Shown here piece by piece: positions 38,491 to 57,462 of a stretch of DNA of 64,000 nt (positions within the stretch are counted from its first letter, which is position 1; each line of letters starts with the position of its first letter). The notes beneath the pieces were generated by a model. That model made no database searches. It saw only the letters and a program-made list of their open reading frames with translations, and was not told the origin of the DNA. Source of the stretch: Candidatus Poribacteria bacterium (GTDB taxonomy: Bacteria > Poribacteria > WGA-4E > WGA-3G); the NCBI GenBank assembly GCA_958295945.1, contig OY282386.1, positions 2,493,864-2,557,863 on the forward strand, read 5' to 3'. The translations under genes and the position numbers were made by a program.

Positions 38491-39297
38491 TTAACCGACT
38501 TCCTGACCGTCTAACCTTCCGACTTGGAGGTCTATTTCATCGCGCGACTCTATCTTGTCAACTTTACCATCTGCCATGTAGAATATGCGATCAGAAACAT
38601 CCAACATCTTGTGATCGTGTGTTGCTGTAATAATGGTTACACCGTTTTCAGCATTGAGACGGCGGAGCAAGTCAATGATTTCAAGACCTGTTTTGGTATC
38701 CAAGTTACCCGTCGGTTCATCTGCGAGGACGATGGCGGGATCGTTAGCAAGCGAACGTGCAATTGCAACACGTTGCTGCTGTCCACCAGAGAGCTCAAGC
38801 GGTTTATGTTGAACTCGGTCACCTAACCCGACAAGAGACAGGAGATCCACACCTTTTTCTCTGCTTTCATCAGCACTCATGCCAGCGAAAATCATCGGCA
38901 GCGAGACGTTTTCCAATGCTGTCATCACAGGAATAAGATTGAACGATTGAAAGATATAACCGATTTTCCGACAACGCAACCACGCCAACTCATAAGCGTC
39001 AAGTTGTGCTATGTCTACCTCGTCAATATAGACTCTGCCTTCAGTCGGTTTATCTAAGCCACCAATCATATTAAAGAGAGTCGATTTTCCCGAACCGGAA
39101 GGTCCCATAATAGAGATATATTCTCCGCGCTGAATTTGGAAATTAACGCCACGCAGCGCGTCTACAGTCTGTGTTCCCATCTCATATCGTTTGATGAGAT
39201 TCCTAACACGGACAGTATTCTCTTTCGGAAGGATGCGTTCAAACCGTTTCGGTGTTTCAGCAAGATCTGGTTGGACACCACCTATTTCTGCTTGCAT
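38491..39297 (-). CDS. ABC transporter ATP-binding protein, LolD/MacB type
   Basis: 268 residues. Walker A GPSGSGKS (65-72), Q-loop YIFQSFNLIPVMTALENV, signature LSGGQQQRVAIARSL, Walker B VLADEPTGNLD, and the switch TATHDHKM. This is the type of ATPase that powers LolCDE, MacB and FtsE-like extractors. No permease is adjacent; the nearest FtsX-type permease is the giant protein at 50158-57429, on the same strand about 11 kb away, so the pairing is only a guess. Start has GGAG eight bases before. Confidence 0.9.
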   Translation of the reverse strand: MQAEIGGVQPDLAETPKRFERILPKENTVRVRNLIKRYEMGTQTVDALRGVNFQIQRGEYISIMGPSGSGKSTLFNMIGGLDKPTEGRVYIDEVDIAQLDAYELAWLRCRKIGYIFQSFNLIPVMTALENVSLPMIFAGMSADESREKGVDLLSLVGLGDRVQHKPLELSGGQQQRVAIARSLANDPAIVLADEPTGNLDTKTGLEIIDLLRRLNAENGVTIITATHDHKMLDVSDRIFYMADGKVDKIESRDEIDLQVGRLDGQEVG

Positions 39298-39333: not shown

Positions 39334-40770
39334 CTACATATTCTTAAATTTGAGTTGGTATGGTGTTTCTCGAATAGTTTGTATTAAGTAGTTTCTTGTC
39401 CATGCAAGTGTATTTTGTAGGTCTATCTCTGGGTTAGGTTGTGTGTACCCTTCTTTTTTGTTTTGTTTACGAAGTGCGTTAAGACTCATAGTGTTTGATT
39501 TCTTACTATTGCACGGTTGGCAGAGTAGCGCGCGGTTATCTATATCGTTTGTACCGCCATCACTTTTAGGGATAATGTGGTCAAGATGCAAATACCTTTT
39601 ATCTGGTGGAATGAAGTTACATCCCCAACATTTTAGTCCGAACTGTTCGGTGAGGATTTCATGCATCTCGGCATGGCTAAGTCGGTATTCGGCTTCAATA
39701 GGGTAGACATGCGCCAATTCAGGTAAAGTTTGATTGTTTTGATCGGTGCGTGTCGGTGGTTCGGTCTGATAGTGCATTTCGTATTTTTGTGCCTGTTTAT
39801 CAAGCCATCCGGGATCACTCCCATCTTTAACAACTTTCTCAAGACGTTCTCGCTCTTTTCGGTCAATTCCCATCAAACGGGTAATAATGTGGTAACGCGC
39901 GTCTTTTCGTCTATCAACACCTATCCAACGACGTTTGTGTTGGTGGGCAGCAATGATCGTTGTGGCACACCCACAGAAAGGGTCTAAGACAAGGTCGTCT
40001 TCATTGCTACTGGCTTTGATAATACGTTCGTAAAGGACAAGTGGTTTTTGGTCAGGGGAACCTGTGCGTTCGTTGGACATTGCATTTAATGCTTGAATGT
40101 TCCAAACATCAAACGGGAGCCTTTCCAAATCTTTAGCACGAGTAGCATTTTCGTTTCCGCTCTCAATACGGCGGATCACTTCCGCAGTTCTGCTGTCTTT
40201 TACTCGCGTCAAATCAATGAAGTATTTTTCCGTTTTGGAGTAGAAATGTATCACATCATGTTTGCGTCCAAACCATCTTTTACTGACCCCGCCCGTTTGG
40301 TAATGCCATACAATCTCATTTAGACAGTTCTTTTTTCCAAAAATAGCGTCCATACACATTTTGATGTAATGACTTGCGGTTGGATCACAATGCAAATAGA
40401 TGCTACCTGTCTCTTTTAGAATACGATGCATCTCAATGAGTCTGACACTGAGAAAGCAGAGGAATGCGGCGGTATCCTCACCTTGACAATGTTTAGCAGC
40501 GTCAATGGCATGGTAAAGTGCAGTGTGGTTGTCTTTGATCTCCTCAAGCCATTTTGGGTGAACTTCGTTCCATTTCCATTGGTCAGGAAGTATGCCAGTG
40601 TCTCCCCATTTCCAGTTATCAACGTAGTGCCCTGCTGTTGCGCTCCGATTGCGTTTTGTGTTGAATGGCGGATCGGTGGCAATAAGGTCAACCGTTTGGC
40701 TGTTCATGCCACGAAGCACGTCTAAATTATCCATTTCATAAAGGGTATTATCTGGGAAGTTTTGTGTCAT
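39334..40770 (-). CDS. Site-specific DNA methyltransferase fused to HNH endonuclease domain
   Basis: 478 residues from the ATG at 40770 (Shine-Dalgarno GAAGGG six bases before). The order is target motif DPPF at 33-36, later motif I DPFCGCATTI, i.e. the beta-type arrangement of adenine-N6 or cytosine-N4 methyltransferases. The last 100 residues contain CWGCNFIPPDKRYLHLDHIIPKSDGGTNDIDNRALLCQPCNSKKS, an HNH nuclease domain with its two zinc-binding Cys pairs. So the same chain has a modification and a nuclease domain. It is the third gene of a cassette with a GHKL ATPase and a C5 methyltransferase. Confidence 0.88.
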   Translation of the reverse strand: MTQNFPDNTLYEMDNLDVLRGMNSQTVDLIATDPPFNTKRNRSATAGHYVDNWKWGDTGILPDQWKWNEVHPKWLEEIKDNHTALYHAIDAAKHCQGEDTAAFLCFLSVRLIEMHRILKETGSIYLHCDPTASHYIKMCMDAIFGKKNCLNEIVWHYQTGGVSKRWFGRKHDVIHFYSKTEKYFIDLTRVKDSRTAEVIRRIESGNENATRAKDLERLPFDVWNIQALNAMSNERTGSPDQKPLVLYERIIKASSNEDDLVLDPFCGCATTIIAAHQHKRRWIGVDRRKDARYHIITRLMGIDRKERERLEKVVKDGSDPGWLDKQAQKYEMHYQTEPPTRTDQNNQTLPELAHVYPIEAEYRLSHAEMHEILTEQFGLKCWGCNFIPPDKRYLHLDHIIPKSDGGTNDIDNRALLCQPCNSKKSNTMSLNALRKQNKKEGYTQPNPEIDLQNTLAWTRNYLIQTIRETPYQLKFKNM

Positions 40771-40826
40771 ATAAAGCCCTTCTAATAAAGTATTGACAGT
40801 CCTATAGATCAAGCATCTAGGATAAA

Positions 40827-42788
40827 TCAAGAATCAGAGTGGTTTTCATCTCTTTGTTTTGCTTCCTGAAGTTCATCATACCGTTCTTGAAATTCAGCAT
40901 GTAGTTGTTTTACATCGCCAAGTAAATCCATATACAACTTTACATAGATTTGTGCTTTTGCTAAATTCTGATGCTTTCCCCTTACTTGATAAGTGTCAAC
41001 CAAATCCCCACAAAGAAGATATCCAACAGCCTCGTCATATTCATTTTCAGGAGCATTTGTGTGTCGAATCCGATCCCGTATAAAATTAACATATTCTTCA
41101 ATCTGGTCAAGTTCTTTTATAGAAACCTTTGACTTTGGGCGTTTTATTTCAACGACAACCAAATGTGTTCCCTCGCGCACACATAGAAAATCAATTCGCC
41201 TATTTGCCTCTGGTATATCATCACTTTCTGGAAATGTATCACGTAGTAAGTCACTATATCTAACTTCGTCATCCACCAAGGTCCAACGCGGATCAAGTAC
41301 CCAAGGGAATTCTCTTAAGAAATTGTGAAGTGTCGGTTTTTCCAACGCATTGTTTTCAATTAGATTCTGAAGCTTTTCTATAGTCATAATTCGTCCTTCA
41401 GTAACCTTTGCCATTTCTTTCGCTTCCAAAATTTCCCATTCCCTAAATAAATTGAGAAGTTTTTCGGGTTCTTCAATCCCTGCGTCCTTTATGTCTTTAG
41501 CCATTTCCCGAAAGGAATCAAACTTCCAAAAGTCAATAAACATGTCAACCACTGGTTCAAAGTCCTCAATGTCAGCATTAGGGCTTTTATCAATTGATTG
41601 CAGTATTAATTGTTTGACTAATTGATCTGCCTGTTTGAATTCACGTTTTTTGTCGATTTCACTTGCCTGCTTTTGAAAATTAATATAGGTTGGATGTTCT
41701 TGTAACTTCTGTTTGTTATCTTCTCTTCGTTTCTTAGCCCATAAAGCCGCAATTTTATTAACCTCTTTTTTCCCCCACTCCTTGAGAGCTGTATTTGCTT
41801 CCGTATCCCATACTAATGAATTTCTAGTTGTTCCAATTGTATCTTCTTCCTCATCAACAAATTCAACGTGCAGTTCACCTATGAGGTAAGACAAGGCAAA
41901 CTGCTGACCAACAACCGCATCGAAAACAAAAGGTTCTTGGACCAGTTTACCTCTCGCCATTAGGGCAATACCACGATCTATATTGTCAATATTAGGTGTT
42001 GTTCGCTCAAGTGCCCCAATCCAACCTTTTACTGTCCAACCTGTTTCTGATTTTATTTCCTCATCATTATAATTCCACAGGTACGGTTTACCATCCATAT
42101 CTTTTGCAAGTAGGCGTTTTAAGTTTCGATCTGTAGGTGAGATTGGGACACCGTTAATCACTACATCAAATTTTTGCACGCCAATTACAGAAAACCGTCT
42201 AGCGAGTCCTTGACGAATTCTGTCGATCGAAATACTACGACTTTTGAATTTCGTGATCTGTTTGAGAGTGATCTTTGTGCCCTGATGGACGGTCCCAGTG
42301 GGTAATAATGATGGAAATTCAATTTCCTGCGTCCCAGTTTTTGCTAACAATTCTCCATAATCCATTCGAAAATGGTTGACCTCTCCATCTTTTGCACTTT
42401 CTATAACGATTTCTTTAGCGATTCCGAAGCCAGAAAATTTACCAATCCCTTTTCTACCCATGATTTTGCGCCCATGAGGTGGTGGTGTTTTTTCGGATTT
42501 TTCTTTTTCGCGCCGATCTCTGCCTATAATGAGGTATTTGGATCGTATGTCCTGATCCGACATGCCAATCCCATCATCACTAATTATGATTTCTGAGGTC
42601 GCTTCGTCAATTGGTGTGTCTGGAATCGTAATCTCAACTTTTGTTGCGTTCGCGTCCCAAGCATTCGCGACCAATTCTGCAATAACTGGTGGTAGTGTTG
42701 AGTACATCTGTAGACCAAGATGTTTAATGGTCCCAGCATCATACTCCATGCGATATGGTTTTTTAGAATTGTTTGCGTCATTATTCAT
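40827..42788 (-). CDS. GHKL (Hsp90/MORC-like) ATPase with C-terminal PD-(D/E)XK nuclease-like domain
   Basis: 653 residues from the ATG at 42788 (AAGGAAG six bases before). GHKL motifs are all present in the first 130 residues: N-box VIAELVANAWDANATKV, G1 ISDDGIGMSDQDI, and G2 HGRKIMGRKGIGKFSGFGI. A middle region of about 300 residues is helical. The C-terminal part LLRDTFPESDDIPEANRRIDFLCVREGTHLVVVEIKRPK is a PD-(D/E)XK core (Asp...Glu-Ile-Lys), similar to Shedu/DUF4263 nucleases. Prokaryotic MORC-like ATPases occur in restriction-modification islands and are believed to act on DNA. The partners are the genes on both sides. Confidence 0.85.
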   Translation of the reverse strand: MNNDANNSKKPYRMEYDAGTIKHLGLQMYSTLPPVIAELVANAWDANATKVEITIPDTPIDEATSEIIISDDGIGMSDQDIRSKYLIIGRDRREKEKSEKTPPPHGRKIMGRKGIGKFSGFGIAKEIVIESAKDGEVNHFRMDYGELLAKTGTQEIEFPSLLPTGTVHQGTKITLKQITKFKSRSISIDRIRQGLARRFSVIGVQKFDVVINGVPISPTDRNLKRLLAKDMDGKPYLWNYNDEEIKSETGWTVKGWIGALERTTPNIDNIDRGIALMARGKLVQEPFVFDAVVGQQFALSYLIGELHVEFVDEEEDTIGTTRNSLVWDTEANTALKEWGKKEVNKIAALWAKKRREDNKQKLQEHPTYINFQKQASEIDKKREFKQADQLVKQLILQSIDKSPNADIEDFEPVVDMFIDFWKFDSFREMAKDIKDAGIEEPEKLLNLFREWEILEAKEMAKVTEGRIMTIEKLQNLIENNALEKPTLHNFLREFPWVLDPRWTLVDDEVRYSDLLRDTFPESDDIPEANRRIDFLCVREGTHLVVVEIKRPKSKVSIKELDQIEEYVNFIRDRIRHTNAPENEYDEAVGYLLCGDLVDTYQVRGKHQNLAKAQIYVKLYMDLLGDVKQLHAEFQERYDELQEAKQRDENHSDS

Positions 42789-42808
42789 GATACACTTCCT
42801 TTTCAATG

Positions 42809-43837
42809 TCAACACGCGTCAATAATTGATTTTCCCAATTGTTCTGCAAGTTTCACTGGGACAGCATTACCAATTTGACGAGCTATACCACCAATGGATG
42901 GACCAAAAAACTCATAATCGTCTGCAAAGGTTTGTAAAGCGGCTGCCTCGCGCAATGAAATTCCTCTGTCTTGCTCTGGATGCACAAAACGACCAGAGTA
43001 TACATCCGTACAACGAGATGTTAATGTTGGCGCAGGCTTATCCCATGCCATCCGTCCAAACACATCTCTATGTGCATTTGGTCTTTCTTGATGACACTTT
43101 AGCAAAATAGATGTGTCAGCCACATCCCGGCGACTACCGCCATCTTTAGGAACGGCCGCGACAATGAGTTTATGGTGGGGCTTCAGTTCCCTAGCAATAT
43201 GATTCTGATAATCTTGCGACTCTTTTCCATCGATAATTTTCGGGTACTTCTCAATACACTCCTTAACTGTTGCAAACTGATTTGGGTCTGTCTGTGGGAT
43301 AGGAAGCGAAATTGATCCATTTCTGGATGCTAAGAGTATGAATCGCTTTCGCGTTTGCGGAACCCCGAAATGTTTCGAATCAAGTAAATTTGCTGTAGGC
43401 TCCGAATATCCACACTCTTTCAGAACCTTTAAGAATTTTTCATATATTTCTTTTCCATAACCGTTGTTCAATCCGGGCACATTTTCAACAAGAATAAAAT
43501 CAGGCGGACATTCTTTCACGATCTCGGCGAAAGTTAAAAGCAAATACTTTCGTTCATCCTCCCCTTTCATTCTGCTGAGAGTAGAAAAGGGTTGACACGG
43601 CGTACATGCGGCATAAAGCGTTACATCTGACTGCTGAATATCAAATAATTCGCGAAACCCATGGATATGAATATCATTGATGTCACTATTTACAAAACAA
43701 CTTGGTGTATTATTAGAAGCATAGGTCTCTCGCAAACTCTCATCGTTATCTACTCCAGCCAGTACCTTGATGCCAGCATTCAACAGGCCTCGTGTTAAAC
43801 CCCCAGCTCCGCAGAAAAAATCAATTGCTTTTATCAT
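42809..43837 (-). CDS. C5 cytosine DNA methyltransferase (Dcm-type)
   Basis: 342 residues. Motif I DFFCGAGGLTRGL, motif IV with the catalytic Cys81 in TPCQPFS, motif VI ENVPG (Glu118), motif VIII QTRKR, and the terminal motifs IX-X ARQIGNAVPVKLA. The target-recognition part between VIII and IX is about 120 residues, normal for one recognition site. The gene starts the cassette; its stop is 20 bases before the GHKL ATPase start, so the two are probably cotranscribed. Confidence 0.92.
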   Translation of the reverse strand: MIKAIDFFCGAGGLTRGLLNAGIKVLAGVDNDESLRETYASNNTPSCFVNSDINDIHIHGFRELFDIQQSDVTLYAACTPCQPFSTLSRMKGEDERKYLLLTFAEIVKECPPDFILVENVPGLNNGYGKEIYEKFLKVLKECGYSEPTANLLDSKHFGVPQTRKRFILLASRNGSISLPIPQTDPNQFATVKECIEKYPKIIDGKESQDYQNHIARELKPHHKLIVAAVPKDGGSRRDVADTSILLKCHQERPNAHRDVFGRMAWDKPAPTLTSRCTDVYSGRFVHPEQDRGISLREAAALQTFADDYEFFGPSIGGIARQIGNAVPVKLAEQLGKSIIDAC

Positions 43838-44048: not shown

Positions 44049-44513
44049 TTATCCTTTAGATAAAAACCCGAAACGTTTCTGTTGCACTGGTTTTTGCGAT
44101 GGTAGTTCATTCGGATTATCTTCAGTTGGGATAGCAAATTGTATAAAATTCCGTTTTCCGAGCATTTTTATAAAGGTAAATAGTGAGGTTTCTGCTTCTT
44201 TTCGAGTTAACCGATGTTTTTTCTGGAGTGCATTGATTATCTGTGAGATTGTGTGTTTGCCATCACACATCTGCCAAACATAAGAACCAATGCTGTCCAA
44301 CACGACGACACGTTTATCCGGCAGCATAAAGATTTTACTTGTTAATCTGATCCAGAATTTTTCTTTCTGTGGAATGACAAGTGATGCCTCGTCCTTATCA
44401 TCTACTTCCCACGTTATCAACTGATTTCTCAATGGGAATGCTTTGAGAACTTTGCTTCTATCCACATCGGGTCGTTTTTTTAGTTTTAGTGCATATAAAG
44501 CTTTGTTAATCAT
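44049..44513 (-). CDS. PqqD family protein
   Basis: 154 residues. The centre reads VVVLDSIGSYVWQMCDGKHTISQIINALQKKHRLTRKEAETSLFTFIKMLGKRNFIQF, the PqqD pattern of winged helix plus peptide-binding strand. PqqD proteins bring peptide substrates to radical SAM enzymes; none is encoded here. The start follows 39 bases after the next gene, and the set (PqqD, unknown, OPT-like) looks like one transcription unit from 47518. Confidence 0.8.
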   Translation of the reverse strand: MINKALYALKLKKRPDVDRSKVLKAFPLRNQLITWEVDDKDEASLVIPQKEKFWIRLTSKIFMLPDKRVVVLDSIGSYVWQMCDGKHTISQIINALQKKHRLTRKEAETSLFTFIKMLGKRNFIQFAIPTEDNPNELPSQKPVQQKRFGFLSKG

Positions 44514-45529: not shown

Positions 45530-47518
45530 CTAAAACGGTTTAACAATAACCGCTTTGGAGACAAGGGCAATTGCAACGGTACCCATTCCTATTAATCCGA
45601 CTCCACAAGCAAATCCTGCTGCCAATACTGGATTGAACATAAACCATCTTTTCAATCCGAATCGCTTGATCATATAGAACCTACCGATGATGGCACCGAG
45701 TAATCTTGCGACCATGCTACCCGGATCAGCCCCAATTCCTCCAATTATTCCGTAAAACCACATAGATGGATATTTTAGTACCCAAAGCATCCCGTAGATT
45801 GCAAGGCTTGATGTAAATCCTGCAGCAACATAATCCCCTCGTATGGCTTGTATGATCTCACTATTACCATCACGCAGAGATGTTTTCATAAGACATTCGT
45901 TCGTTGCGTTGATGGGCCACATCATCTGAACAAACGGATATTGCGCGCTCGGAATTGGTGCAATTTGCCATATAAAGTGCTGCACCAATATTCCACTTAT
46001 AATCAGAATAGGCATAATCAGCAGCGTCGCAGCGAGGTTTGATGTAAAGGTCGTTCCTGTCAGTTCAAGCACACGCCATCCTTGTGTGCCCGCACCGTAA
46101 TCTTCATCGGGAAGCGGGGCAAACCAAATATCAATTTCCTCGTAACGACTGAGAATAAAGGTTATCTCATGCAAGTAAGGTATTTCAAATAGGTCACGTC
46201 CAAGCACTCCGAATGTTCGTGCGGTTATATATGAGTTTATTGGTGTATATACAAATGCGAATCCGAGCAAGAAACTGACTGGGAAATTCGGCACCATCCA
46301 ATGGATAAGCCATACAAATCCTCCCATACCGATGAGCCATAGTATACCCATTAGCCATAGCGGGAAATCACCTCTGTTCGGTGGCGTAGCAAGGGAACCA
46401 CGTTCTCCTGCTTTTTTCTGCGTTTTGCGAAGTTTGAATAACATCGGAACAGAGGCTGCCATCCCGACAAGACCAAGAGTAAATGTCTTACCAATGTCGT
46501 AACTCCGCCAGAAATCAAGGCCATTGAAGAGGACTGTTGCACGCACATCAGACCCAGGATGCCACTGGTGCAATATTTCATTTGGATATAGAATGTGCGG
46601 ATTTAAAACAAATTGCGAAAGCATTGCGGTGACAAACTCTGACATCACGACAGGGAACGGCAAGACGAACCCAAAGAGCATCTGTCCAAAATCTGTTCGG
46701 AGAGCAAAGACACCTGTCGGCGCGAATCCTTCTATGCTTTGTGTAAAGTCTATCCACGGGATCTTCAGTATCTGTATCGGTTGACTCATCATGACACCGG
46801 AGAGCGCGGGAACACCGATGTAAATGAATCCCCATATTAAACCTGCCATAGACCCGATAGAAAAGACCTGCCATCGCCATGTTTCCTGTTTTCCAGTCGT
46901 TTCGGCTAACGCAGTTGCACCTTGTGCGGTAATCGGTGCCATGGGATATGGGAGTCGTTCAAGGTCTGCAGTAAGTCTAAAGAGTATATATTGACCACTG
47001 ACAACCCGAAGCGTGCCAAGGAACTTCCCCGCAAGATAGATACCTATAGGCAGCAACCAATCAGGATGCAGCAGACTGCGCGTCAAAACTCCAGCAGAAT
47101 CACCGGCAGGAACGACCCACGCAGGGATCTTATCGGCAATTTCGTAGGAAATCGCCTGCGGTGTGTTCACAAAATATGCATACCAGATGAAACTCCGATA
47201 TTGCATACCACTGCCGACTGCTGCCCCTGTTAGACTGAGCAGCATATAGAGTTCTTGACGACGGGCTGTCGTGAATGATCGTCTGGCTAATTCGGTGAAC
47301 AGGATAACTGCCACCCACGGGGCAGCCGCTGCACCAGATTGACCAGATACATAACTCAGATAGATGGAACCTGGCATCATGAGCAAACCGACAAAGAGTG
47401 CCCCGAAGAACACTTTGACGGTTAACCCCGATTCAAAGGTTCGGACACCACCTTCTATGTCGTATCGTTGTGCCCACGTTTGCCATTCATCTGCTTGTGA
47501 GATTCTCTCTCGCGCCAA
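45530..47518 (-). CDS. OPT-like membrane protein (DUF6785/DUF6784 type)
   Basis: 662 residues from TTG (47518), with AGGAG nine bases before. About 14 membrane segments, with the conserved blocks ALFVGLLMMPGSIYLSYVSGQSGAAAAPWVAVILF, LERLPYPMAPITAQGATAL, and MIKRFGLKRWFMFNPVLAAGFACGVGLIGMG. It is a divergent paralogue of the protein at 21842 and begins the operon ending with the PqqD gene. It is long and full of prolines at helix starts, as in oligopeptide transporters. Substrate unknown. Confidence 0.85.
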   Translation of the reverse strand: MARERISQADEWQTWAQRYDIEGGVRTFESGLTVKVFFGALFVGLLMMPGSIYLSYVSGQSGAAAAPWVAVILFTELARRSFTTARRQELYMLLSLTGAAVGSGMQYRSFIWYAYFVNTPQAISYEIADKIPAWVVPAGDSAGVLTRSLLHPDWLLPIGIYLAGKFLGTLRVVSGQYILFRLTADLERLPYPMAPITAQGATALAETTGKQETWRWQVFSIGSMAGLIWGFIYIGVPALSGVMMSQPIQILKIPWIDFTQSIEGFAPTGVFALRTDFGQMLFGFVLPFPVVMSEFVTAMLSQFVLNPHILYPNEILHQWHPGSDVRATVLFNGLDFWRSYDIGKTFTLGLVGMAASVPMLFKLRKTQKKAGERGSLATPPNRGDFPLWLMGILWLIGMGGFVWLIHWMVPNFPVSFLLGFAFVYTPINSYITARTFGVLGRDLFEIPYLHEITFILSRYEEIDIWFAPLPDEDYGAGTQGWRVLELTGTTFTSNLAATLLIMPILIISGILVQHFIWQIAPIPSAQYPFVQMMWPINATNECLMKTSLRDGNSEIIQAIRGDYVAAGFTSSLAIYGMLWVLKYPSMWFYGIIGGIGADPGSMVARLLGAIIGRFYMIKRFGLKRWFMFNPVLAAGFACGVGLIGMGTVAIALVSKAVIVKPF

Positions 47519-47930: not shown

Positions 47931-50132
47931 TTATCCGTAACATGATTTAATAAACTCGTTGACATTAGATTCGTGTTCAGTCAACTCCTCTTTGACTGCC
48001 CTCAACTTTGTGTCTATATCTTCAATAGGTTTGATTTTCGCTTTCTGATCGTCAATTGATATAACGGGGATAGGAAAATCTCTGATATGCTCAATATAAA
48101 TGTGAGGTTGCCCTGTCCCTTGTTGCCGACGATAAAGTGGGGTTTGCATAGATTTCAGACACATATAAAGGTATCGCGTTAAATACTTTGTTTCATCTTT
48201 GCTTTGAACGACAATAGAATCGGAAGCCCATATCGGATCATTATGCCACCACACATAACCTGAATAAACTCCTGATTTGCTAACGGTAAATATGTTTCCA
48301 GGGTAGTTGGCTTCACTATGTGTATATGGAATAGTTCCTCTACCACCTGCTATGACCGGAATGTTGCCCGCCGTGGTAGTCCCTTCAGTAATTGATATAC
48401 CGTTTTTCAAATTTGCAACATCTTCAAGATTTACGTACTCTATGTGGTCGCTAACTTTCCAATCCTCATGTAAACTGAAACCTCTATCGCTTTGAACATT
48501 CTTAACCTGCACAACACCAATTTCAAACCCTTCTGGCAAGTTTTCCACAGGGACCTCCGACGGGGTATGGAAAAATAGAACATTATCTAAATCGTTTATA
48601 CCTGTTATTGGATTTCTCTTACTGTCAAAACCATCGTTATTAACTGTCACTCGGTAAAACCAGTCTGTCTGGCATACTCCTTTATCTGTCAAATAAATGA
48701 TTCCTGTTTTAGCATCCGTATATGGTGCAAAACAACCGCGAGGAAGTCTAACCAGCATTCTGACGCGAGAGTTACCTAAAATATATCGTAACATTTTTCG
48801 ATGAACCTTGTTTACAAGTAACCCTTCCGGCACAACAATTGCCATTGCACCTCCGACCTTTAGACTGTTAAAACACTTAAGGACGCAAGCTTCGTCAGCA
48901 TCTTTTGCTCTATGTCCTTTGGACCTATCCAATATATCTTTGGAAAGATCAAGAGAAAAAGGAATGTTTGAAAGGACATTATTATTTTCCGCCTTAGTTT
49001 CTGTCAATAGGCTGTCATTTTGGGATACGCCAGAATGACCGTCACCAAACAATATCATATTCATTTTGGCAATTCGCGCAGTGGTCGTGATTTCATTACC
49101 AAAAACCGTTCTATTATGGAGTTTATCAGATGCGGACATTGATAATCTTCGTTGTTGACTGATATGCTTGAAGGACTCCGTAAGAAACCCACCCGTTCCA
49201 CAAAATGGGTCATACACGGTTTCACCGAACTTTGGATTGAGTAGTCTCACCATGAATCTAACGATGTGACGCGGTGTAAAGTACTCTCCTAAGTCGTTTG
49301 TAGCTGTAGTTGTCTTCTCCATAAAATACTCAAATGCCGATCCCTTAATATCTTCGTCAATGTCGGTAAGATTTAATGGATTGAGTTTTTGCACTATCTT
49401 TTTAATTATAGCATTACTATCGGTGGTTACAGGTGAAATAACTTCTCCACCGTAATTCTCTTTAAGTCGGTTAACGATGACTGAATTCAAATACTGCACA
49501 ATATCATTTTCGGGGAGTCTCATCAAAGTGTCCCAAATGTCGTTTTCCCCCTTTTCACTCAGCAATTTTAGGAATAGTATATTAGCAAATTCGCTGAACC
49601 GCTCAATACCAGCGCGAATCCCAGCACTTCTGAAATCGTCATTGAGTTCCGAAAATAGATGAATCAGTTCGTCTCTGGATTTAATTACCTCCCTGGATAC
49701 TGTGTACACTTCATTAGTATTCTCAAAGCGAAAAATTCTTAATATATCTGGTGGCAGGAACTCATTAACCTCAACACCGTTGAAGAACAGTGGTTCAGAT
49801 TTCTGCAAATGCCGAGATTTAAGACTCAAACCGTTGCACGCAAATACAATGTCCACGTCCATGCACTCTGCATAATCGATCACCTGATTGAGTGCATCGT
49901 CAAGATTCACGATATTAGATTTTTTTGCTTCTATTATGGCTATCGGCTGAACACCATCAAACAGTGTGTAGTCAGGCTTTTTCTGTCCAAGTTTCCCGAT
50001 ATTCCGCTGCAACAACCGGCTTTTAACTGCATTTTCAAAAAAAACATTTTGTCGGGTGTCATGTGCATCAAGTATCCAACCGTTCGCCTCCAAAGAACGA
50101 TCTATCTGGTATCGAACGTCTTGTTCAATCAT
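47931..50132 (-). CDS. Single-chain restriction-modification-specificity protein (Type IIG-like)
   Basis: 733 residues. The N-terminus has a HsdR_N-type PD-(D/E)XK core: KKPDYTLFDGVQPIAIIEAKKS (about residues 50-72). A HsdM-type N6-adenine methylase follows with motif I YDPFCGTGGFLTESF and motif IV as SNIPFS. The last 200 residues are HsdS-like target-recognition sequence (VNLEDVANLKNGISITEG, HIRDFPIPVISIDDQ) with a coiled terminus. Nuclease, methylase and specificity in one chain without a helicase is the layout of Type IIG/IIC enzymes. The active-site NPPF is NIPF here, which needs testing. It starts 25 bases after the giant gene's end. Confidence 0.85.
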   Translation of the reverse strand: MIEQDVRYQIDRSLEANGWILDAHDTRQNVFFENAVKSRLLQRNIGKLGQKKPDYTLFDGVQPIAIIEAKKSNIVNLDDALNQVIDYAECMDVDIVFACNGLSLKSRHLQKSEPLFFNGVEVNEFLPPDILRIFRFENTNEVYTVSREVIKSRDELIHLFSELNDDFRSAGIRAGIERFSEFANILFLKLLSEKGENDIWDTLMRLPENDIVQYLNSVIVNRLKENYGGEVISPVTTDSNAIIKKIVQKLNPLNLTDIDEDIKGSAFEYFMEKTTTATNDLGEYFTPRHIVRFMVRLLNPKFGETVYDPFCGTGGFLTESFKHISQQRRLSMSASDKLHNRTVFGNEITTTARIAKMNMILFGDGHSGVSQNDSLLTETKAENNNVLSNIPFSLDLSKDILDRSKGHRAKDADEACVLKCFNSLKVGGAMAIVVPEGLLVNKVHRKMLRYILGNSRVRMLVRLPRGCFAPYTDAKTGIIYLTDKGVCQTDWFYRVTVNNDGFDSKRNPITGINDLDNVLFFHTPSEVPVENLPEGFEIGVVQVKNVQSDRGFSLHEDWKVSDHIEYVNLEDVANLKNGISITEGTTTAGNIPVIAGGRGTIPYTHSEANYPGNIFTVSKSGVYSGYVWWHNDPIWASDSIVVQSKDETKYLTRYLYMCLKSMQTPLYRRQQGTGQPHIYIEHIRDFPIPVISIDDQKAKIKPIEDIDTKLRAVKEELTEHESNVNEFIKSCYG

Positions 50133-50157: not shown

Positions 50158-53100
50158 CTAATCAGTCGTTGTCATGACCGGTTCCAATCCTGCAGTCCCT
50201 TCCGCTGTTTCGGTGTTTTCAGTTCTTCCTCTTTCGTGGAATTCTGCGCGAATGTCAACACTAAATGTCCGCCAAATCAACAATTGTTTCCGCAACAGAT
50301 TGAGGAAACGACGATTAACACGTTTCCAAGAGGCAATCTCACCACTTTCACGGTTGACTTCTAAAGTGATTTTGTATAGGTCTTCCTCTTCTCCACCAAC
50401 AGGTGAGGTGACAAACTGGATTGATTGACTAACACCCAAATCGTAAGGTGCTAACCACACCATCATACCAATCTGATATGAATCCTCTTCTTCTTTTGCA
50501 CTGAAAGCAACGTTGTCGGTGTAAAAATCACTTGCCGACTCATCAGCGTGTGCGTCAAAGTAGTCGCGCATAAAGACATTCAATCCGAGTGCTTCTTCTG
50601 CTAACACGGTGAAAGGAAGATTGAAATGCCATACATCACCATCAGGTTCAGGCAGTTTCCATTTCCGTTCAATATCTGGCACAGCCATCCGCGATGCTTT
50701 AATGGCAGGATACAGTGTGCTGAGAAGCACCACAATCATCACGATTATGGTTGCAACGACGGTTGACATTGAAGAATAGTTAAGGGTTAATCCTGCAAGC
50801 CAACCGAAATGCACTAAGGTTGTTGCAATCACTTGACCCATCAAATATCCCAACACAGCCCCAACAATTGCATATACACACGCCTCTGCAAGGAAAAGGA
50901 AAGCAATATGCGTAGGTGCAAGACCGACAGAACTATAGATGCTGATTTCACGGACGCGCTCATAAACGGCACCGAGCATTGTATTCAGAACAATCAACGC
51001 AGCAATCAGAATAGGCACAAAAAGGTTACCCATACCACTAAAACTTGTCATACCGATACTACTGTATAGATAGGTATCTTTATCGCGTCCCACAAAGAAG
51101 TCAAGTGCAATGCGGTTCATCAGGGGTGCCATGATGAGATCCAATTTGTCTATCGCTCCTAACAATTCCGGGTCATCCTCTCGCGGTTCCATATTGACTG
51201 CGACACTTCTTAACGTTCCACCTTGGTTCATGACAACTTCATAAGGCAAAATGGCAATGCTATCAGGGGTAAGATGCAGATACTTCTGCAGTTCACCCTC
51301 AAGGGTTTCATCACCTGTTCCACCTCGGCTGGTTTGCTGTTGCATCAATTGGTAATCCACAGGTGTGAGTTCTTCACCATCATTATCTGTCAAATCTTTG
51401 AACCCTATACCCAAAACACCAACGACGGTGAAGTCTGCACCATATACAGAAATTGTAGCTTTGCCCATATCACTTTCTGTGATTTTCAGGAGGTCAGCCA
51501 TTCCTTTCGGTAGAACGATGGCATAAGGCCACTCGGTTGGCCAATTTTCAGCATCCGCACGGTCAAACCATTTTCCGTATTGCAAATAGCGATCAATACC
51601 TGTGACTGAAGACTCAGCCTCACTCATCCCAACAAGCATGTTGGCAGCAAAACGCATAGCTTCACCAGTAAGTGTGTTCGTCGGTGGTGCGGGGTCTTGT
51701 TCGTTTGAACTTCGCGTCAATTGCACAAAGGATTGATCACCTGTTCCAGAAGACTGGTACCAAGATCTTGGTGCTACAACATTCTCCACAGCAAGAACAG
51801 GTTTTTTATTAACATTCACGATATATCCATCATCTTGCAATCCGGTTATTGCAGCCGGCACATCCAATGTCTCTCGCCCCTGCTTTGCCAATAGATTGTT
51901 CTTCTGTTGCAAGTGTTTTTCCAAATCTCCAACAGAGACTTGCGTTTTCTGCATGTCGTTTAGAATGGAGTTGAGAACAGGTTCTTCAAGGGGGCGCCAA
52001 TATTGGTCACGGATGAGCAGACCCGTGTAACGCGGTGTAACTTGTGGTAGACTTGTTCGGTTAGGACGCATAAATGTCCGCACTGATGTGAATGAAATGA
52101 CGGTAAAGGTAAGGATCACCAACGTTACACACGTTAAGATTGTCCGTCCTTTACGTTTTCGCATGTTGGAAATACCGAGACTAAACGCAGCAGCACTTGC
52201 ACTCAACCTACCCACATCGGCTTTATACACCTTATTCCCTTGCTGCCGTATTTTCTCAAGCTGCTCCTCAAATTTACGAACAATAATGCTAATCACAATC
52301 ACTGTTAACGCAAGCACAACGAATGCAATTAAGATGATGATGGGTGTTGTGGTAATCTGGAATGCGGGATGCACCTGACTTAAGAAGTAAAATACGAGCA
52401 GGAAGATACCGAAGGTTGCCAAAATCTGTTTGTTAATGTTTGGGAACCCGAATATAAGCCGTTCCAAAAAGTAAGCGAACGGCATCAGGAGCGCGAGGTA
52501 GAACATGATCCCGTTAACGACATCGTTCCCTGTTCTTTTGACATCAGGATAGGCACGCGATTCGTAGCCCCATGCAGCGCGTGCTAACTTGAGTGCTTGT
52601 TGATAATCATTTTGGAAGAGTGCTGTTTCCGCACGATTGAGATAATCATCTGCCATTTGATGTAGTTTGTCAAGTCTATCGCTGGAAATGCCGAACCGCT
52701 TATATAGACGGGAACGGTTTTCATCCAGCCACCACATATCCCGCACAACAACATAGGGAGTTAAACGGATACTACCATTTTCACGCACAACGAACCCTTC
52801 CCCCGTATAGAGCGTTGGGTTTTTCATACCACTTTTTGTGGCTTTAATCAGGAGCAAACGTTTACCAATTTGTCCATACGCCATACCGATTTTAATTCGG
52901 CTCTCCGGTTCGCTATATACAAGTGCGATAGGTTCAGCAGCAGAGACCCCTTCCTGTTGCCACGGTTTAGACACACCAAATTTTTCGGGTGGACTATCAG
53001 ATAATGCATCGTAGACCTCCAATTCACGTAAAGTTCGAAGGTAACGCTGGTCAACCAGATCGTAAATTGTCGTTGAGACACAAGGGAAAGTAACGACACG

Positions 53101-56100
53101 GCAACCGCGTCGGCGTGTGTTGATTGGCACTTTGTTCGGTAATAGTTTTGCACCGTAGTTTCCTAAATCTGGCGCGTAAACAATATCACCAGAATCGGGA
53201 TCAAGGATGTATGCTTCAACTTCCTGAGCACCTCCGAGTCTGCGAGTTGCTCTACCTTCCATAGCCAATCCAGCAACTTCAAAATTGCCTTTGTTATCTC
53301 CCATAGTGAATAGATCACCACGGACACCCATCATCGTCTTGTGTTTACGACGGAGCGTTATGATCGGGTACGGCACAGGTTTATTAGGTAGCGCAGATTC
53401 ACGAGCATCAAATTCAACGACATCTCCGAATAGGTTGCAGTAGAAGTTTCCGACTCTTGCTGCAGTCGGCATTTGTGGATCGCGGAGTGCCTGTATCAAT
53501 AAAGATGCTAAGGTCTGTGCTTGTTGGTGTAAATTTCCATCTTGACGTAGATCCACACGGTCGATTGTATCAAGTGGGGTGTCAGTGAGGACGCGGGCAT
53601 CTTCAATAGTAGCAAACGCTATACCTGTCTTGCCGACAAGCGTAGCAACTTCGCTGTCAAAAGCGATTTTCCCCGGAATATAAGTTTTCCAAGTCTTGCC
53701 TCCACTAGCAGAAATAGCATTGACAAAATTAGTGCCACCACCGAGTCCTACAATTGAAATTAAGGTTTTGATGTCCTCAATTTCATCTTCTGTAAATGTG
53801 TCTGGGTCTTCGTGCCGCAGTCTGAGCATCGCATCTAATTGTCCACGCATACGGATACTGTTCTTACGATTTTTCTTCGCACTCCGAACATCATTTCGAA
53901 TAAACCTTTCAACTTCTTTTCGGATATAGTCCATATCTTTGAGCATATCTTCAGAAGGTTCCCCCCTGTTTCTCCACTGCTCAAACTGCATCCGCATGAG
54001 CCGACTCACACCACCTAAACCGGAAAGTTTTCCATAATGTGCACTCAGAAGGGTCTCAAGTGTCTTTCCTTCAAGGGCAGCCTTGTCTGAAATCTGACTT
54101 GCGACCGACCATTGTCGTTCCATGACAGCTTGACGTATCTGGTCATCCGTTGCACGCCATAATTTTCTGACACGCACACCGAAATCTGCATCCGATGCAT
54201 AATCTGCCAGTTTATTCCCGATGCTTGCGAACTCACGACGGAGAACGAACTCAGGTTCTTGATCATAAAACCAACCCTTGTTAAATACACCAAATTGATT
54301 TGATTGAGAGGACAGATCAACACTACAGAAAAGCGAAGTGTAATAGCGGTTGAATAGGTCTTGTAATGCTACAGCAGCCTCTATCTGTGCCAGTTTACGA
54401 TTGTATTCTTCCTCACTAATACGCGACATCTTCTCAACACGACTCTGAATATTTCTGAATCGCGCATTCCGTAAGGTGAGCATGTTATCACGAAGAAGCT
54501 CCTTAGTTTGCGCATCTAAATCGGAGGTTAACGTCGGGAGTTTTTCTACGAGATTGTCAAGAGCGATGACATCAGCAGCAGCATTCAATTTGACCGCTTG
54601 AAGTATTTGTGCCTCAGTAAGATATGCTGCGAGACGTTTACGTGCGTCTTTTGCCTGTTCTAATTCTTCATTTGACAGGTAACTTTGCAGAATCAACAAC
54701 TCCTCATCCAGATATTCACGTGTAAGGGTGTTATGGGTTTCCAATAGATTTTGGATGCGTTCCTGTTCTAAACGTGCATTCCGTAATGCTATTTCAAATA
54801 TCCCTTGTTTATCACGTGCCAAATCTTTGATTAGACCGTCTTCACTTTCACTAACAACATCTGCTGCTTCTGCTTCAGTTAAACGTTGACGTAGCTGCGC
54901 ATTTATTCTGTCAATCCGTTCTTGTGTTGAAACCGTAAGATACTGAGTTGCTATTTCAGTCGGTAAATCGTTGAGCCGGTCAGTACCTAATTGGGTGATA
55001 GCATCTTTAATCTGATTTTCTGTGAACGTGTTGTCCTTGATATTTCCTTGAACTTTTTGGAGTAATGCACGCTCTCGTGATATTATTGCTTCCTCGGTTT
55101 CAGTTGTGTTTGCGAGGGTTTTTCGCGCATCTCGTGCCTTTCTGAGAGTCGGCAGGTCTAAATGACGATCAAGTATCTTATCAGGTGTCCACATCAAAGC
55201 AAACTTCCGCGTGTCACTCATCTCCCAGTTCGCTAAGGTGCTGTTCAATTTCTCAATTTCAGCGTTCAATTCTGAAGGGAGATCGTCTGGTGTTGGCACT
55301 TGATAATCGGTACCGTTCTTTACAGGCAATAGGTAGGAAAAATTCGGGTGTGTGCCGTATTTATCACTTATTTCTTTTGTCTCAAGTTCACGTATTAATC
55401 TATCCACTGCCCATGTATCCAAGCGTGCAATCGGTAGGGCAATATCTTCAATCAATTCTTGTTGTGCTTTCTTGCTTGTTACCAACGCGGATGTCCGTAT
55501 CTGTCCAAGTCTGTTGACAATCTGTCGAAGGAAGTGTGTGGTTTGCAGTGCTTCCTTTTCAAAACGGACGAGATTTGCATCAAGTCTTGATTTCTCTTCT
55601 TCAGTGAATCCCTGTTTTTCACGTTTTCGGTTTCGTTCTGCATCTTTTTTCTGTCGTTCAGAAAAATCGCGTTGCGCCCTATGTAGCACATCAATCTGTG
55701 CCCGCGTTGATGACAGTCCTTCAAGTGTTGTAGAAAGCGAATCGAGGTCATCCTTAATACCGTGCACACCGTGGTAGAAATCCGCGTCAAGGTCAACCAA
55801 AACTGTGCGATCAATTGAGAGCAAGAGTTTGCGACCTAATTCTTCAAATTCAATAATATCTGTGGACAATCCTCGTCTTAGACCTTGCAGTGTAGGTGTT
55901 CCTGGTGAGTCTATGGCAGACCCGACAATATCTTGTCCGATACCTTCCATGAATGCACGCATACCAGCCAAACCTTGAAAATGTGCGTCAACCGCGACAA
56001 ATAATACGGAACGACCGGGACGGTATTGGGGTTCCCCGAATAATCGTACGAGTTCCATCAACACAGCAATGCCACAAGTTGGATCGGCACCAGGAGCGAT

Positions 56101-57429
56101 AGCGGGAATAACAGACATAGAATCATAATACGCAGTGAGAACAACTAACTCGTCGCGTAAAATTGGATCACCGCCTTCTAAGAATCCACGAATGTTTTGT
56201 CCAACACGTCGTTCCCATTTCATTTTACCACGCAAACGGACATTCACTTCCTCTCCATTCGCAAGGATTTCTTTTAAGTGGACAGCATCTGTTTTAGACA
56301 CCCAAAACCGTGGGATATTAGCAGGAACAGTGAGGAACTTGTTTTCTGCTTCCCCACGTATTGTTGTTTCAGGTTCAATAAAAATAACAGCGGATGCACC
56401 TAACATCGCAGCGTTTATCCACCGAGTTCCAGAGTTAAACTCAGCGAGGACGATTGCCCCTTTTGGAATAAATATATGGGATTCGCTTGCTGTTATGAAT
56501 TCGCCAGTTTCGTCAATCTGTCCATCTTTGTTGTTATCAAGTCCATCAGTGGCATCGCCTGGAATTTCATCTGTCCATCCGTCTGCATTGTTGTCAATAC
56601 CGTCTGTTGCCCAACCAAGAATTTCTGATAACAGTGGGATTTCACCATACTCGTCAGTAACCCCATCTTCATCGTTATCAATACCATCTGAGGCTTTCTG
56701 GAGATGTCCGTTGAGCACATCATCGGTGATACTTGCTTGGGTGACACGAAATCGTCTGGCAAGGGAAACAAGCGTATCACCTTCTTGGAGTTCATACCAA
56801 AATCCGCCAACGTTACTTCCATTGAAATCAGCAAGTTGAGCATCATCACCGTAAAGCAACGTACCAGTGAGACCACCCGTTGGAATAAATACTGTGTTGC
56901 CTTCTACGATAGGCGACGGTAGGTATTGGTTATGAGGATTTTGTGTAATGTCTGTCAGGGAGACAGCATAGTTTTGAGCGATTATTTCAAGGGTTTCACC
57001 CGCCGCAACAGTATGTTTGACACCATCGGTAAGGAGAGATGTCCGAACAAGATTCGGCCACAACGACTTGAGTGGAAAGCTCTGCAGCACATTGCCATCA
57101 GAAGATAGGATTTCAATAGCACTATTACCGTAGTCAATAGGGACAGTGACAGTAAACTCACGGCTTTCAATATTCTTCAATCCCATTTCAACGAAACGGT
57201 CAAAGATATACTTACTACCATTTGCTGCTTGCGGATAGCCTGTAACCCGAGACTCTAAACTTGATAAACGAGCCAAGTCCTTCCGAATGTTCCGTATAGA
57301 TACTTCATCCCTTATCTGAATTGCTGCTTCTGATAACCCTAACTTTTTCTCACCGTCTGCTGCGTAACTAATCGGTATGTTACCACAAAAAACAAATAAT
57401 AATATAACAATATAAATCCAGTTCCTCAT
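50158..57429 (-). CDS. Giant membrane protein: LysM, degenerate M28 peptidase, coiled coil and FtsX-type permease
   Basis: 2423 residues from the ATG at 57429 (GAGGA before it; numbers below include 4 extra residues of the longer frame). Signal peptide 1-28; LysM-like module 143-187 (TVAAGETLEIIAQNY); second LysM opening at 215 (EGDTLVSLARRF), broken by three Asp-rich repeats at 251-312 (DGIDNDEDG type); M28 peptidase-like domain 330-520 with altered zinc residues; long helical coiled-coil region 540-1300; and in the last 900 residues an MacB/FtsX-type permease with about seven membrane helices (LIVLNTMLGAVYERVREISIYSSVGLAP). The protein seems to combine an outer peptidoglycan/cell-surface module with an ABC permease. 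Upstream ATPase may be the protein at 38491. Confidence 0.85.
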   Translation of the reverse strand: MRNWIYIVILLFVFCGNIPISYAADGEKKLGLSEAAIQIRDEVSIRNIRKDLARLSSLESRVTGYPQAANGSKYIFDRFVEMGLKNIESREFTVTVPIDYGNSAIEILSSDGNVLQSFPLKSLWPNLVRTSLLTDGVKHTVAAGETLEIIAQNYAVSLTDITQNPHNQYLPSPIVEGNTVFIPTGGLTGTLLYGDDAQLADFNGSNVGGFWYELQEGDTLVSLARRFRVTQASITDDVLNGHLQKASDGIDNDEDGVTDEYGEIPLLSEILGWATDGIDNNADGWTDEIPGDATDGLDNNKDGQIDETGEFITASESHIFIPKGAIVLAEFNSGTRWINAAMLGASAVIFIEPETTIRGEAENKFLTVPANIPRFWVSKTDAVHLKEILANGEEVNVRLRGKMKWERRVGQNIRGFLEGGDPILRDELVVLTAYYDSMSVIPAIAPGADPTCGIAVLMELVRLFGEPQYRPGRSVLFVAVDAHFQGLAGMRAFMEGIGQDIVGSAIDSPGTPTLQGLRRGLSTDIIEFEELGRKLLLSIDRTVLVDLDADFYHGVHGIKDDLDSLSTTLEGLSSTRAQIDVLHRAQRDFSERQKKDAERNRKREKQGFTEEEKSRLDANLVRFEKEALQTTHFLRQIVNRLGQIRTSALVTSKKAQQELIEDIALPIARLDTWAVDRLIRELETKEISDKYGTHPNFSYLLPVKNGTDYQVPTPDDLPSELNAEIEKLNSTLANWEMSDTRKFALMWTPDKILDRHLDLPTLRKARDARKTLANTTETEEAIISRERALLQKVQGNIKDNTFTENQIKDAITQLGTDRLNDLPTEIATQYLTVSTQERIDRINAQLRQRLTEAEAADVVSESEDGLIKDLARDKQGIFEIALRNARLEQERIQNLLETHNTLTREYLDEELLILQSYLSNEELEQAKDARKRLAAYLTEAQILQAVKLNAAADVIALDNLVEKLPTLTSDLDAQTKELLRDNMLTLRNARFRNIQSRVEKMSRISEEEYNRKLAQIEAAVALQDLFNRYYTSLFCSVDLSSQSNQFGVFNKGWFYDQEPEFVLRREFASIGNKLADYASDADFGVRVRKLWRATDDQIRQAVMERQWSVASQISDKAALEGKTLETLLSAHYGKLSGLGGVSRLMRMQFEQWRNRGEPSEDMLKDMDYIRKEVERFIRNDVRSAKKNRKNSIRMRGQLDAMLRLRHEDPDTFTEDEIEDIKTLISIVGLGGGTNFVNAISASGGKTWKTYIPGKIAFDSEVATLVGKTGIAFATIEDARVLTDTPLDTIDRVDLRQDGNLHQQAQTLASLLIQALRDPQMPTAARVGNFYCNLFGDVVEFDARESALPNKPVPYPIITLRRKHKTMMGVRGDLFTMGDNKGNFEVAGLAMEGRATRRLGGAQEVEAYILDPDSGDIVYAPDLGNYGAKLLPNKVPINTRRRGCRVVTFPCVSTTIYDLVDQRYLRTLRELEVYDALSDSPPEKFGVSKPWQQEGVSAAEPIALVYSEPESRIKIGMAYGQIGKRLLLIKATKSGMKNPTLYTGEGFVVRENGSIRLTPYVVVRDMWWLDENRSRLYKRFGISSDRLDKLHQMADDYLNRAETALFQNDYQQALKLARAAWGYESRAYPDVKRTGNDVVNGIMFYLALLMPFAYFLERLIFGFPNINKQILATFGIFLLVFYFLSQVHPAFQITTTPIIILIAFVVLALTVIVISIIVRKFEEQLEKIRQQGNKVYKADVGRLSASAAAFSLGISNMRKRKGRTILTCVTLVILTFTVISFTSVRTFMRPNRTSLPQVTPRYTGLLIRDQYWRPLEEPVLNSILNDMQKTQVSVGDLEKHLQQKNNLLAKQGRETLDVPAAITGLQDDGYIVNVNKKPVLAVENVVAPRSWYQSSGTGDQSFVQLTRSSNEQDPAPPTNTLTGEAMRFAANMLVGMSEAESSVTGIDRYLQYGKWFDRADAENWPTEWPYAIVLPKGMADLLKITESDMGKATISVYGADFTVVGVLGIGFKDLTDNDGEELTPVDYQLMQQQTSRGGTGDETLEGELQKYLHLTPDSIAILPYEVVMNQGGTLRSVAVNMEPREDDPELLGAIDKLDLIMAPLMNRIALDFFVGRDKDTYLYSSIGMTSFSGMGNLFVPILIAALIVLNTMLGAVYERVREISIYSSVGLAPTHIAFLFLAEACVYAIVGAVLGYLMGQVIATTLVHFGWLAGLTLNYSSMSTVVATIIVMIVVLLSTLYPAIKASRMAVPDIERKWKLPEPDGDVWHFNLPFTVLAEEALGLNVFMRDYFDAHADESASDFYTDNVAFSAKEEEDSYQIGMMVWLAPYDLGVSQSIQFVTSPVGGEEEDLYKITLEVNRESGEIASWKRVNRRFLNLLRKQLLIWRTFSVDIRAEFHERGRTENTETAEGTAGLEPVMTTTD

Positions 57430-57462
57430 ATATATCCTCAAATAGTTGATTTCACTTGTTTT

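What the first reader, a model, noticed from the sequence alone, without database searches (positions are those of the whole stretch)
39334..43837. Three-gene methyltransferase / GHKL-nuclease / methyltransferase-HNH cassette
A C5 methyltransferase, a MORC-like ATPase carrying a PD-(D/E)XK domain, and a beta-type methyltransferase with a C-terminal HNH nuclease lie in one operon. It looks like a composite defence system with two different base modifications and two nuclease domains. GHKL ATPases next to methyltransferases are known in prokaryotic R-M islands, but this full set is not one I recognise.
Basis: partly seen in the sequence, partly recalled or inferred. Interest (0 to 1): 0.68.

Follow-up and report, generated by a model that had tools for sequence, protein, structure and literature searches.

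The report
Two neighbouring restriction-modification units
Three neighbouring bacterial genes are most likely two separate DNA-immunity units side by side, a known-type pair (cytosine methylase plus ATP-binding nuclease) and a self-contained methylase-nuclease that usually lives alone elsewhere in related genomes, rather than one new three-part system.

Summary
The three genes are real, intact and adjacent (window 39334-43837, minus strand; a Poribacteria chromosome). Genes 1+2 (C5 methyltransferase + GHKL ATPase with PD-(D/E)XK nuclease) form a two-gene Type II restriction-modification (R-M) pair, a sister subfamily of the BbrUII/HgiDII restriction enzymes, described in 2008 as "paraMORC3". 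The pair is adjacent at 15 of 16 poribacterial loci and 11 of 12 plasmid loci examined. Gene 3 (beta-class methyltransferase fused to HNH) is not part of that unit. It belongs to a family of which about 30 copies sit in 17 of 85 Poribacteria genomes; only 4, plus one remnant, lie beside the pair. Those four are not a clade (AU p = 0.0002 without the recognition domain). The window's copy is nearest to a solitary copy (91%), and their shared DNA is the gene alone. Recognition domains in this family are swapped wholesale (21% mean identity between 84%-identical flanks), also among the four cassette copies, whereas the C5 enzyme's is conserved. The island occupies one insertion site (PqqD/ABC junction), empty in a close relative. 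Verdict: observation confirmed, composite-system interpretation not supported. The mildly novel element is the single-chain methyltransferase-HNH family with exchangeable recognition domains. No activity was tested.

The parts
42809..43837 (-). C5-cytosine DNA methyltransferase (342 aa), modification subunit of a Type II R-M pair; motif IV PCQPFS, motif VI ENV, motif X GNAVP
   Evidence: Pfam PF00145 3.9e-57; TIGR00675 dcm 149.8 bits, above cut-off 100.65; adjacent to the GHKL gene in 15/16 poribacterial and 11/12 plasmid loci
40827..42788 (-). GHKL ATPase + S5 + C-terminal PD-(D/E)XK nuclease (653 aa from ATG 42788), predicted restriction subunit; paraMORC3 / BbrUII-HgiDII-like sister subfamily
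   Evidence: NF050001 360.7 bits over the full length, cut-off 550; PADLOC REase_II 2.9e-46; invariant E493, D533, ExK547-549, Q562xxxY; nuclease model Z 10.7 to EndoMS, 10.4 to Shedu
39334..40770 (-). Beta-class (DPPF; predicted m6A) DNA methyltransferase with variable target recognition domain and C-terminal HNH nuclease (478 aa from ATG 40770); predicted self-contained R-M enzyme
   Evidence: PF01555 2e-42, PF01844 1.8e-12; solitary homologues, 91% identical to G001 copy with DNA match limited to the gene; TRD swapping
40075..40314 (-). Target recognition domain of the MTase-HNH protein (about residues 153-232), the exchanged segment
   Evidence: Mean pairwise identity 0.21 against 0.84 on both sides in 22 homologues
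39334..39810 (-). HNH nuclease region (about residues 321-478): CxxC...LDH...N...CxxC
   Evidence: Pfam HNH; motif present in all 22 close family members; dN/dS 0.15-0.19
44049..44513 (-). Flanking PqqD-domain gene: left border of the insertion site (host gene, not part of the system)
   Evidence: In relatives without the island it lies next to the ABC gene with a gap of about 30-520 bp; about 90 bp in nearest relative G016
38491..39297 (-). Flanking ABC-transporter ATPase gene: right border of the insertion site (host gene)
   Evidence: 94-98% identical across the family, syntenic with PqqD

Best explanation
The island is two functionally separate restriction-modification units next to each other in a variable insertion site of Poribacteria chromosomes. 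Unit A is a two-gene Type II system. The C5 methyltransferase marks a fixed DNA sequence, and the GHKL protein, a BbrUII/HgiDII-like (paraMORC3) enzyme, cuts DNA lacking that mark with its NucS/Shedu-like PD-(D/E)XK domain. By analogy with MutL, the GHKL domain probably controls dimerisation or clamping by ATP (inferred). Unit B is one polypeptide: a beta-class methyltransferase whose exchangeable recognition domain picks a sequence, methylates it (predicted N6-adenine) and, when the site is unmodified, directs the fused HNH nuclease (inferred). Because the recognition domain is swapped while the HNH and catalytic parts stay the same, one domain most likely sets both modification and cleavage specificity. 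Shown here: domains, catalytic residues, pair conservation, solitary occurrence of unit B, domain swapping, insertion site. Inferred: enzymatic activities, ATP role, target sequences, defence against phage.
For: Unit A: end-to-end match to NF050001 and PADLOC REase_II; invariant nuclease and GHKL residues; nuclease fold; C5 gene adjacent in 15/16 poribacterial loci and 11/12 plasmid loci from Bacteria and haloarchaea, with gene 3 in none of the plasmid loci. Unit B is separate: about 30 copies in 17 genomes, 4 intact plus 1 remnant next to a GHKL gene; 15 solitary loci share no neighbour except in pairs of loci, mostly syntenic; window copy 91% identical to a solitary copy in G001, DNA identity confined to 39355-40776; cassette copies not a clade (p-AU 6.9e-50 whole protein; 0.0002 without TRD); in G074 the third gene is reduced to an HNH fragment while C5 + GHKL stay open. 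Uncoupled specificity: TRDs of the other three cassette MTase-HNH proteins share 15-18% with the window's, while the C5 enzyme's TRD region is 55-95% identical in 20-residue blocks, like the rest of it.
Against: At this one site gene 3 or its remnant accompanies the pair in 5 of 5 genomes, three times in the same order, so some benefit of linkage or a shared promoter cannot be excluded. The nuclease activity of HNH within unit B, and its dependence on the TRD, are untested. The BbrUII equivalog cut-off is not reached (360 against 550 bits).
Confidence: 0.75

Rival explanations
1. One composite three-gene defence system: the two methylations and two nucleases act together, for example the HNH protein as an accessory effector gated by the GHKL ATPase.
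For: Operon-like spacing; 5 of 5 loci at this insertion site carry gene 3 or its remnant.
Against: Pair without gene 3 at 11/16 poribacterial and 12/12 plasmid loci; gene 3 alone in about 26 of 30 cases; cassette copies of gene 3 not monophyletic and carrying different TRDs although the C5 TRD is conserved; G020 has gene 3 at the opposite end.
Confidence: 0.1
2. Gene 3 is a methyltransferase with a homing-type HNH: the nuclease promotes copying of the gene into new sites (selfish single-gene element) rather than restricting invaders.
For: DNA similarity between window and G001 copies is limited to the gene itself; many scattered loci; the HNH resembles those of IscB/Cas9-like nucleases.
Against: No common insertion target or terminal repeats were demonstrated; the family tree without the TRD largely follows host genera, suggesting mostly vertical inheritance; the fused methyltransferase would protect the target.
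Confidence: 0.1
3. Gene 3 is an orphan (regulatory or protective) methyltransferase whose HNH is weak or modification-dependent.
For: A second copy in the same genome (G000:C1:3262600-3264053) has MTase and HNH in different frames with the MTase frame open, so the HNH can be separated or lost.
Against: HNH motif kept in all 22 close members and under purifying selection (dN/dS 0.15-0.19).
Confidence: 0.15

Closest known systems
BbrUII/HgiDII family Type II R-M systems (NCBIfam NF050001; M.HgiDII methylates GTCGAC as m5C, cited in PMC5867850)
   Same: Same two genes, overlapping or adjacent, and same GHKL-S5-PD-(D/E)XK architecture, aligned end to end (residues 21-651 to 1-650 of 659).
   Different: 360 bits, below the equivalog cut-off of 550 that other poribacterial, Rhizobium and haloarchaeal loci pass (779-801 bits); about 27-33% identity to those. 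Target sequence therefore not transferable.
paraMORC3 GHKL proteins of R-M operons (Iyer, Abhiman and Aravind 2008, PMC2292703)
   Same: N-terminal GHKL, S5 domain, C-terminal RE-fold E-D-ExK nuclease related to RecB-type; linked to cytosine methylases.
   Different: No helicase gene in this locus; the paper also describes standalone members.
Single-chain restriction-modification enzymes (Type IIG)
   Same: Methyltransferase, recognition domain and nuclease in one polypeptide, no separate subunit genes nearby.
   Different: From general knowledge, classical Type IIG enzymes mostly use gamma-class methyltransferases and PD-(D/E)XK nucleases; here a beta-class (RsrI/MboIIA-like) methyltransferase carries HNH.
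Shedu (SduA) and EndoMS/NucS nucleases
   Same: Fold of the C-terminal nuclease domain of gene 2 (Z 10.2-10.7).
   Different: No GHKL ATPase or methyltransferase partner is known to me for these; fold similarity only.

Membership tests
BbrUII/HgiDII restriction enzymes (NF050001) | Score at or above the curated equivalog cut-off (550 bits) | tested here: not met
   360.7 bits; sister loci of the same subfamily 359-362 bits
BbrUII/HgiDII restriction enzymes (NF050001) | Full-length colinear homology and adjacent C5 methyltransferase | tested here: met
   Residues 21-651 against 1-650 of 659; C5 gene adjacent
BbrUII/HgiDII restriction enzymes (NF050001) | Recognition of GTCGAC | tested here: inconclusive
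   GTCGAC counts do not separate hosts with the island (G000 162, G012 205) from those without (G016 179, G009 196); G067 pairs a window-type C5 enzyme with a true BbrUII-type nuclease, only a lead
paraMORC3 (Iyer 2008) | GHKL motifs + S5 domain + C-terminal RE-fold E-D-ExK nuclease | tested here: met
   Invariant or near-invariant ELxANAWDA, DxGxGM, GRKGxGKF, E493, D533, E547xK549, QxxxY; nuclease fold. The S5 fold itself rests on sequence position, as the model is poor there
MORC family proper | GhXhhpXXRhl motif in the S5 domain | tested here: not met
   Nearest stretch is GIALMARGKLV: alanine at the polar position, K in place of R (motif)
Type IIG-like single-chain R-M (gene 3) | Methyltransferase, TRD and nuclease on one chain without dedicated partner genes | tested here: met
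   Domains; 15 solitary loci without conserved neighbours beyond pairs
Type IIG-like single-chain R-M (gene 3) | Cleaves unmodified DNA at or near the sequence it methylates | not testable with these tools
   Needs biochemistry; TRD swapping with conserved nuclease is indirect support
DISARM / Druantia | Signature helicase and companion genes with a C5 methyltransferase | tested here: not met
   DrmMII/DruM models hit only as generic C5 methyltransferases; none of the neighbouring genes scanned in the window is a helicase

The most novel reading that the evidence does not exclude
Gene 3 represents a distinct class of single-chain restriction-modification enzyme: a beta-class methyltransferase fused to an HNH nuclease, in which one recognition domain that is exchanged as a cassette between copies sets the specificity of both methylation and cleavage, spread at about 30 sites in Poribacteria.
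Probability: 0.45. Interest if true: 0.5.

Novelty: new member of a known kind. Interest (0 to 1): 0.33.

Why it matters
It corrects a plausible but wrong reading of an operon as a new composite defence system, and points to something smaller and testable: a family of compact methyltransferase-HNH proteins whose recognition domains are naturally swapped. If one domain controls both activities, the natural variants would form a ready-made set of single-gene restriction enzymes with different targets. The island also marks a recurrent insertion site for R-M genes in Poribacteria.

Tried and rejected
GTCGAC avoidance as a test of specificity: uninformative, depleted genus-wide with or without the island. 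Viral contigs: no close relatives of gene 2 or gene 3; phages: only HNH proteins at about 40% over part of the HNH. Plasmids: gene 3 relatives match mainly the methyltransferase part, at most 78% of the query. PDB sequence search: gene 2 only weak GHKL hits (Hsp90, PMS1). The AlphaFold model of gene 2 is poor in the N-terminal part (pLDDT under 50 over nearly all of residues 1-344), so the GHKL fold rests on sequence, not on the model. Literature searches found no paper on a beta-class methyltransferase with C-terminal HNH; absence in this library is not proof. Monophyly of the cassette copies of gene 3 was tested with and without the TRD and rejected both times.

Full report
What is there. 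The window lies in a Poribacteria chromosome: it is at G000:C1:2493864-2557863, and the nearest named relatives of gene 2 are Candidatus Poribacteria MAGs. On the minus strand three intact genes follow each other: C5 methyltransferase 42809-43837, GHKL protein 40827-42788 (the long ORF starts at GTG 42815, but an ATG with AAAGGAAG upstream sits at 42788), and methyltransferase-HNH 39334-40770 (the long ORF starts at TTG 40830, the RBS-preceded ATG is at 40770). Spacings are therefore 20 and about 56 bp.

Gene 2. It matches the NCBIfam BbrUII/HgiDII restriction enzyme model over its whole length with 360.7 bits, below the cut-off of 550, and PADLOC Type II restriction enzyme models. Loci from the same phylum, from Rhizobium and from haloarchaea that share only about 27-33% identity with it pass that cut-off with 779-801 bits, so the window protein belongs to a sister subfamily. 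Alignment with four homologues shows conserved GHKL motifs and an invariant E493 / D533 / E547-x-K549 / QxxxY nuclease site. A structure model, reliable only for the C-terminal part, places the nuclease with EndoMS/NucS (Z 10.7) and Shedu (Z 10.4). This is the architecture called paraMORC3 by Iyer and colleagues in 2008, who linked such proteins to R-M operons with cytosine methylases. The MORC-specific S5 motif is nearly but not exactly present, so 'MORC-like' is right only in the wide sense.

Gene pair. In 85 Poribacteria genomes the family occurs in 14 genomes at E <= 1e-30, and G027 falls just short; counting the second G019 copy this makes 16 loci. A C5 methyltransferase gene is adjacent at 15 of these 16 (exception G022). 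Among 12 annotated plasmid loci from Acinetobacter to haloarchaea, 11 have it (exception Rubrobacter). Gene trees of the two are broadly congruent. One reassortment was seen: G067 carries a window-type C5 gene (77%) next to a true BbrUII-type nuclease.

Gene 3 is a different story. Searching with its HNH region finds about 30 copies (at least 50% identity) in 17 of 85 genomes; 4 intact copies and one remnant lie next to a GHKL gene. Fifteen solitary copies share no neighbouring gene except in pairs of loci, mostly syntenic ones. The window copy is 91% identical to a solitary copy in G001, and DNA similarity covers 39355-40776 only, that is the gene and nothing else. The four cassette copies do not form a clade with the whole protein (p-AU 6.9e-50), the HNH part (1e-4) or everything except the recognition domain (2e-4). 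In G020 the gene is on the other side of the pair. In G074 only an HNH fragment remains after the GHKL gene while genes 1 and 2 are open.

Recognition domains. Across 22 close homologues the methyltransferase flanks are 84% identical on average, the segment between them (residues 153-232 in the window protein) only 21%, with a length range of 80 to 173 residues. Among the cassette copies the window's domain shares 15-18% with the other three, yet the C5 enzyme's recognition region is 55-95% identical between the same cassettes in 20-residue blocks, like the rest of that protein. The two methyltransferases therefore do not track each other's specificity. The window and G001 copies share the domain (96%) with dN/dS 0.03 there, so it is kept functional. 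The HNH motif is present in all 22 and the HNH region is under purifying selection (dN/dS 0.15-0.19).

Insertion site. The flanking PqqD-domain and ABC-ATPase genes sit next to each other in relatives, with gaps of about 30 to 520 bp in those read closely; in G016, with 95% and 98% identical flanking proteins, the gap is about 90 bp. The island occupies this gap in G000, G012, G032, G020 and G074. Cassette genes are about equally diverged within and between genera although the flanks are not, which fits repeated acquisition or long-lived presence/absence variation at one site; these data do not decide between the two.

Mechanism. The best reading is a Type II R-M pair plus an independent single-chain R-M enzyme. 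Shown: gene content, residues, fold of the nuclease domain of gene 2, linkage statistics, domain swapping, selection. Inferred: methylation chemistry (m5C from the C5 family; m6A from DPPF and similarity to RsrI and MboIIA), ATP use, cleavage of unmodified DNA, and defence. The target sequence of either unit is unknown; GTCGAC is a guess by family for unit A and was neither supported nor excluded by site counts.

Judgement. As found, the locus is a new member of known kinds. The part worth follow-up is the methyltransferase-HNH family with exchangeable recognition domains.

Noticed in passing
window 47931-50132 (-): A single-chain protein with HsdR_N-like nuclease region, N6 methyltransferase and one Methylase_S specificity domain (Type IIG / fused Type I-like), 4 kb from the island; a further R-M gene in the same region.
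   Followed up: no
L151 4296-7442 (G067:C158): A window-type C5 methyltransferase (77% identity) sits beside a genuine BbrUII/HgiDII-type GHKL nuclease (788 bits): partner swap between subfamilies, hinting at shared specificity.
   Followed up: partly
G000:C1:3262600-3264053 (L074 about 6100-7629): A second methyltransferase-HNH copy in the window's own genome with the MTase and HNH parts in different frames (450- and 167-aa open frames).
   Followed up: partly
window 50158-57441 (-): 2427-aa ORF with FtsX-type permease, Peptidase M28 and LysM matches; an unusual combination in one frame.
   Followed up: no
L076 5834-14491 (G044:C1): In another family of the order a solitary methyltransferase-HNH gene lies about 6 kb from the same PqqD/ABC junction, separated by duplicated 664-665-aa genes similar in DNA to window 45530-47518.
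   Followed up: no
phylum Poribacteria: GTCGAC is depleted against its reversed control in family f1 (about 160-525 against 630-1090 per genome) but enriched in G036 of another family (1193 against 176).
   Followed up: no
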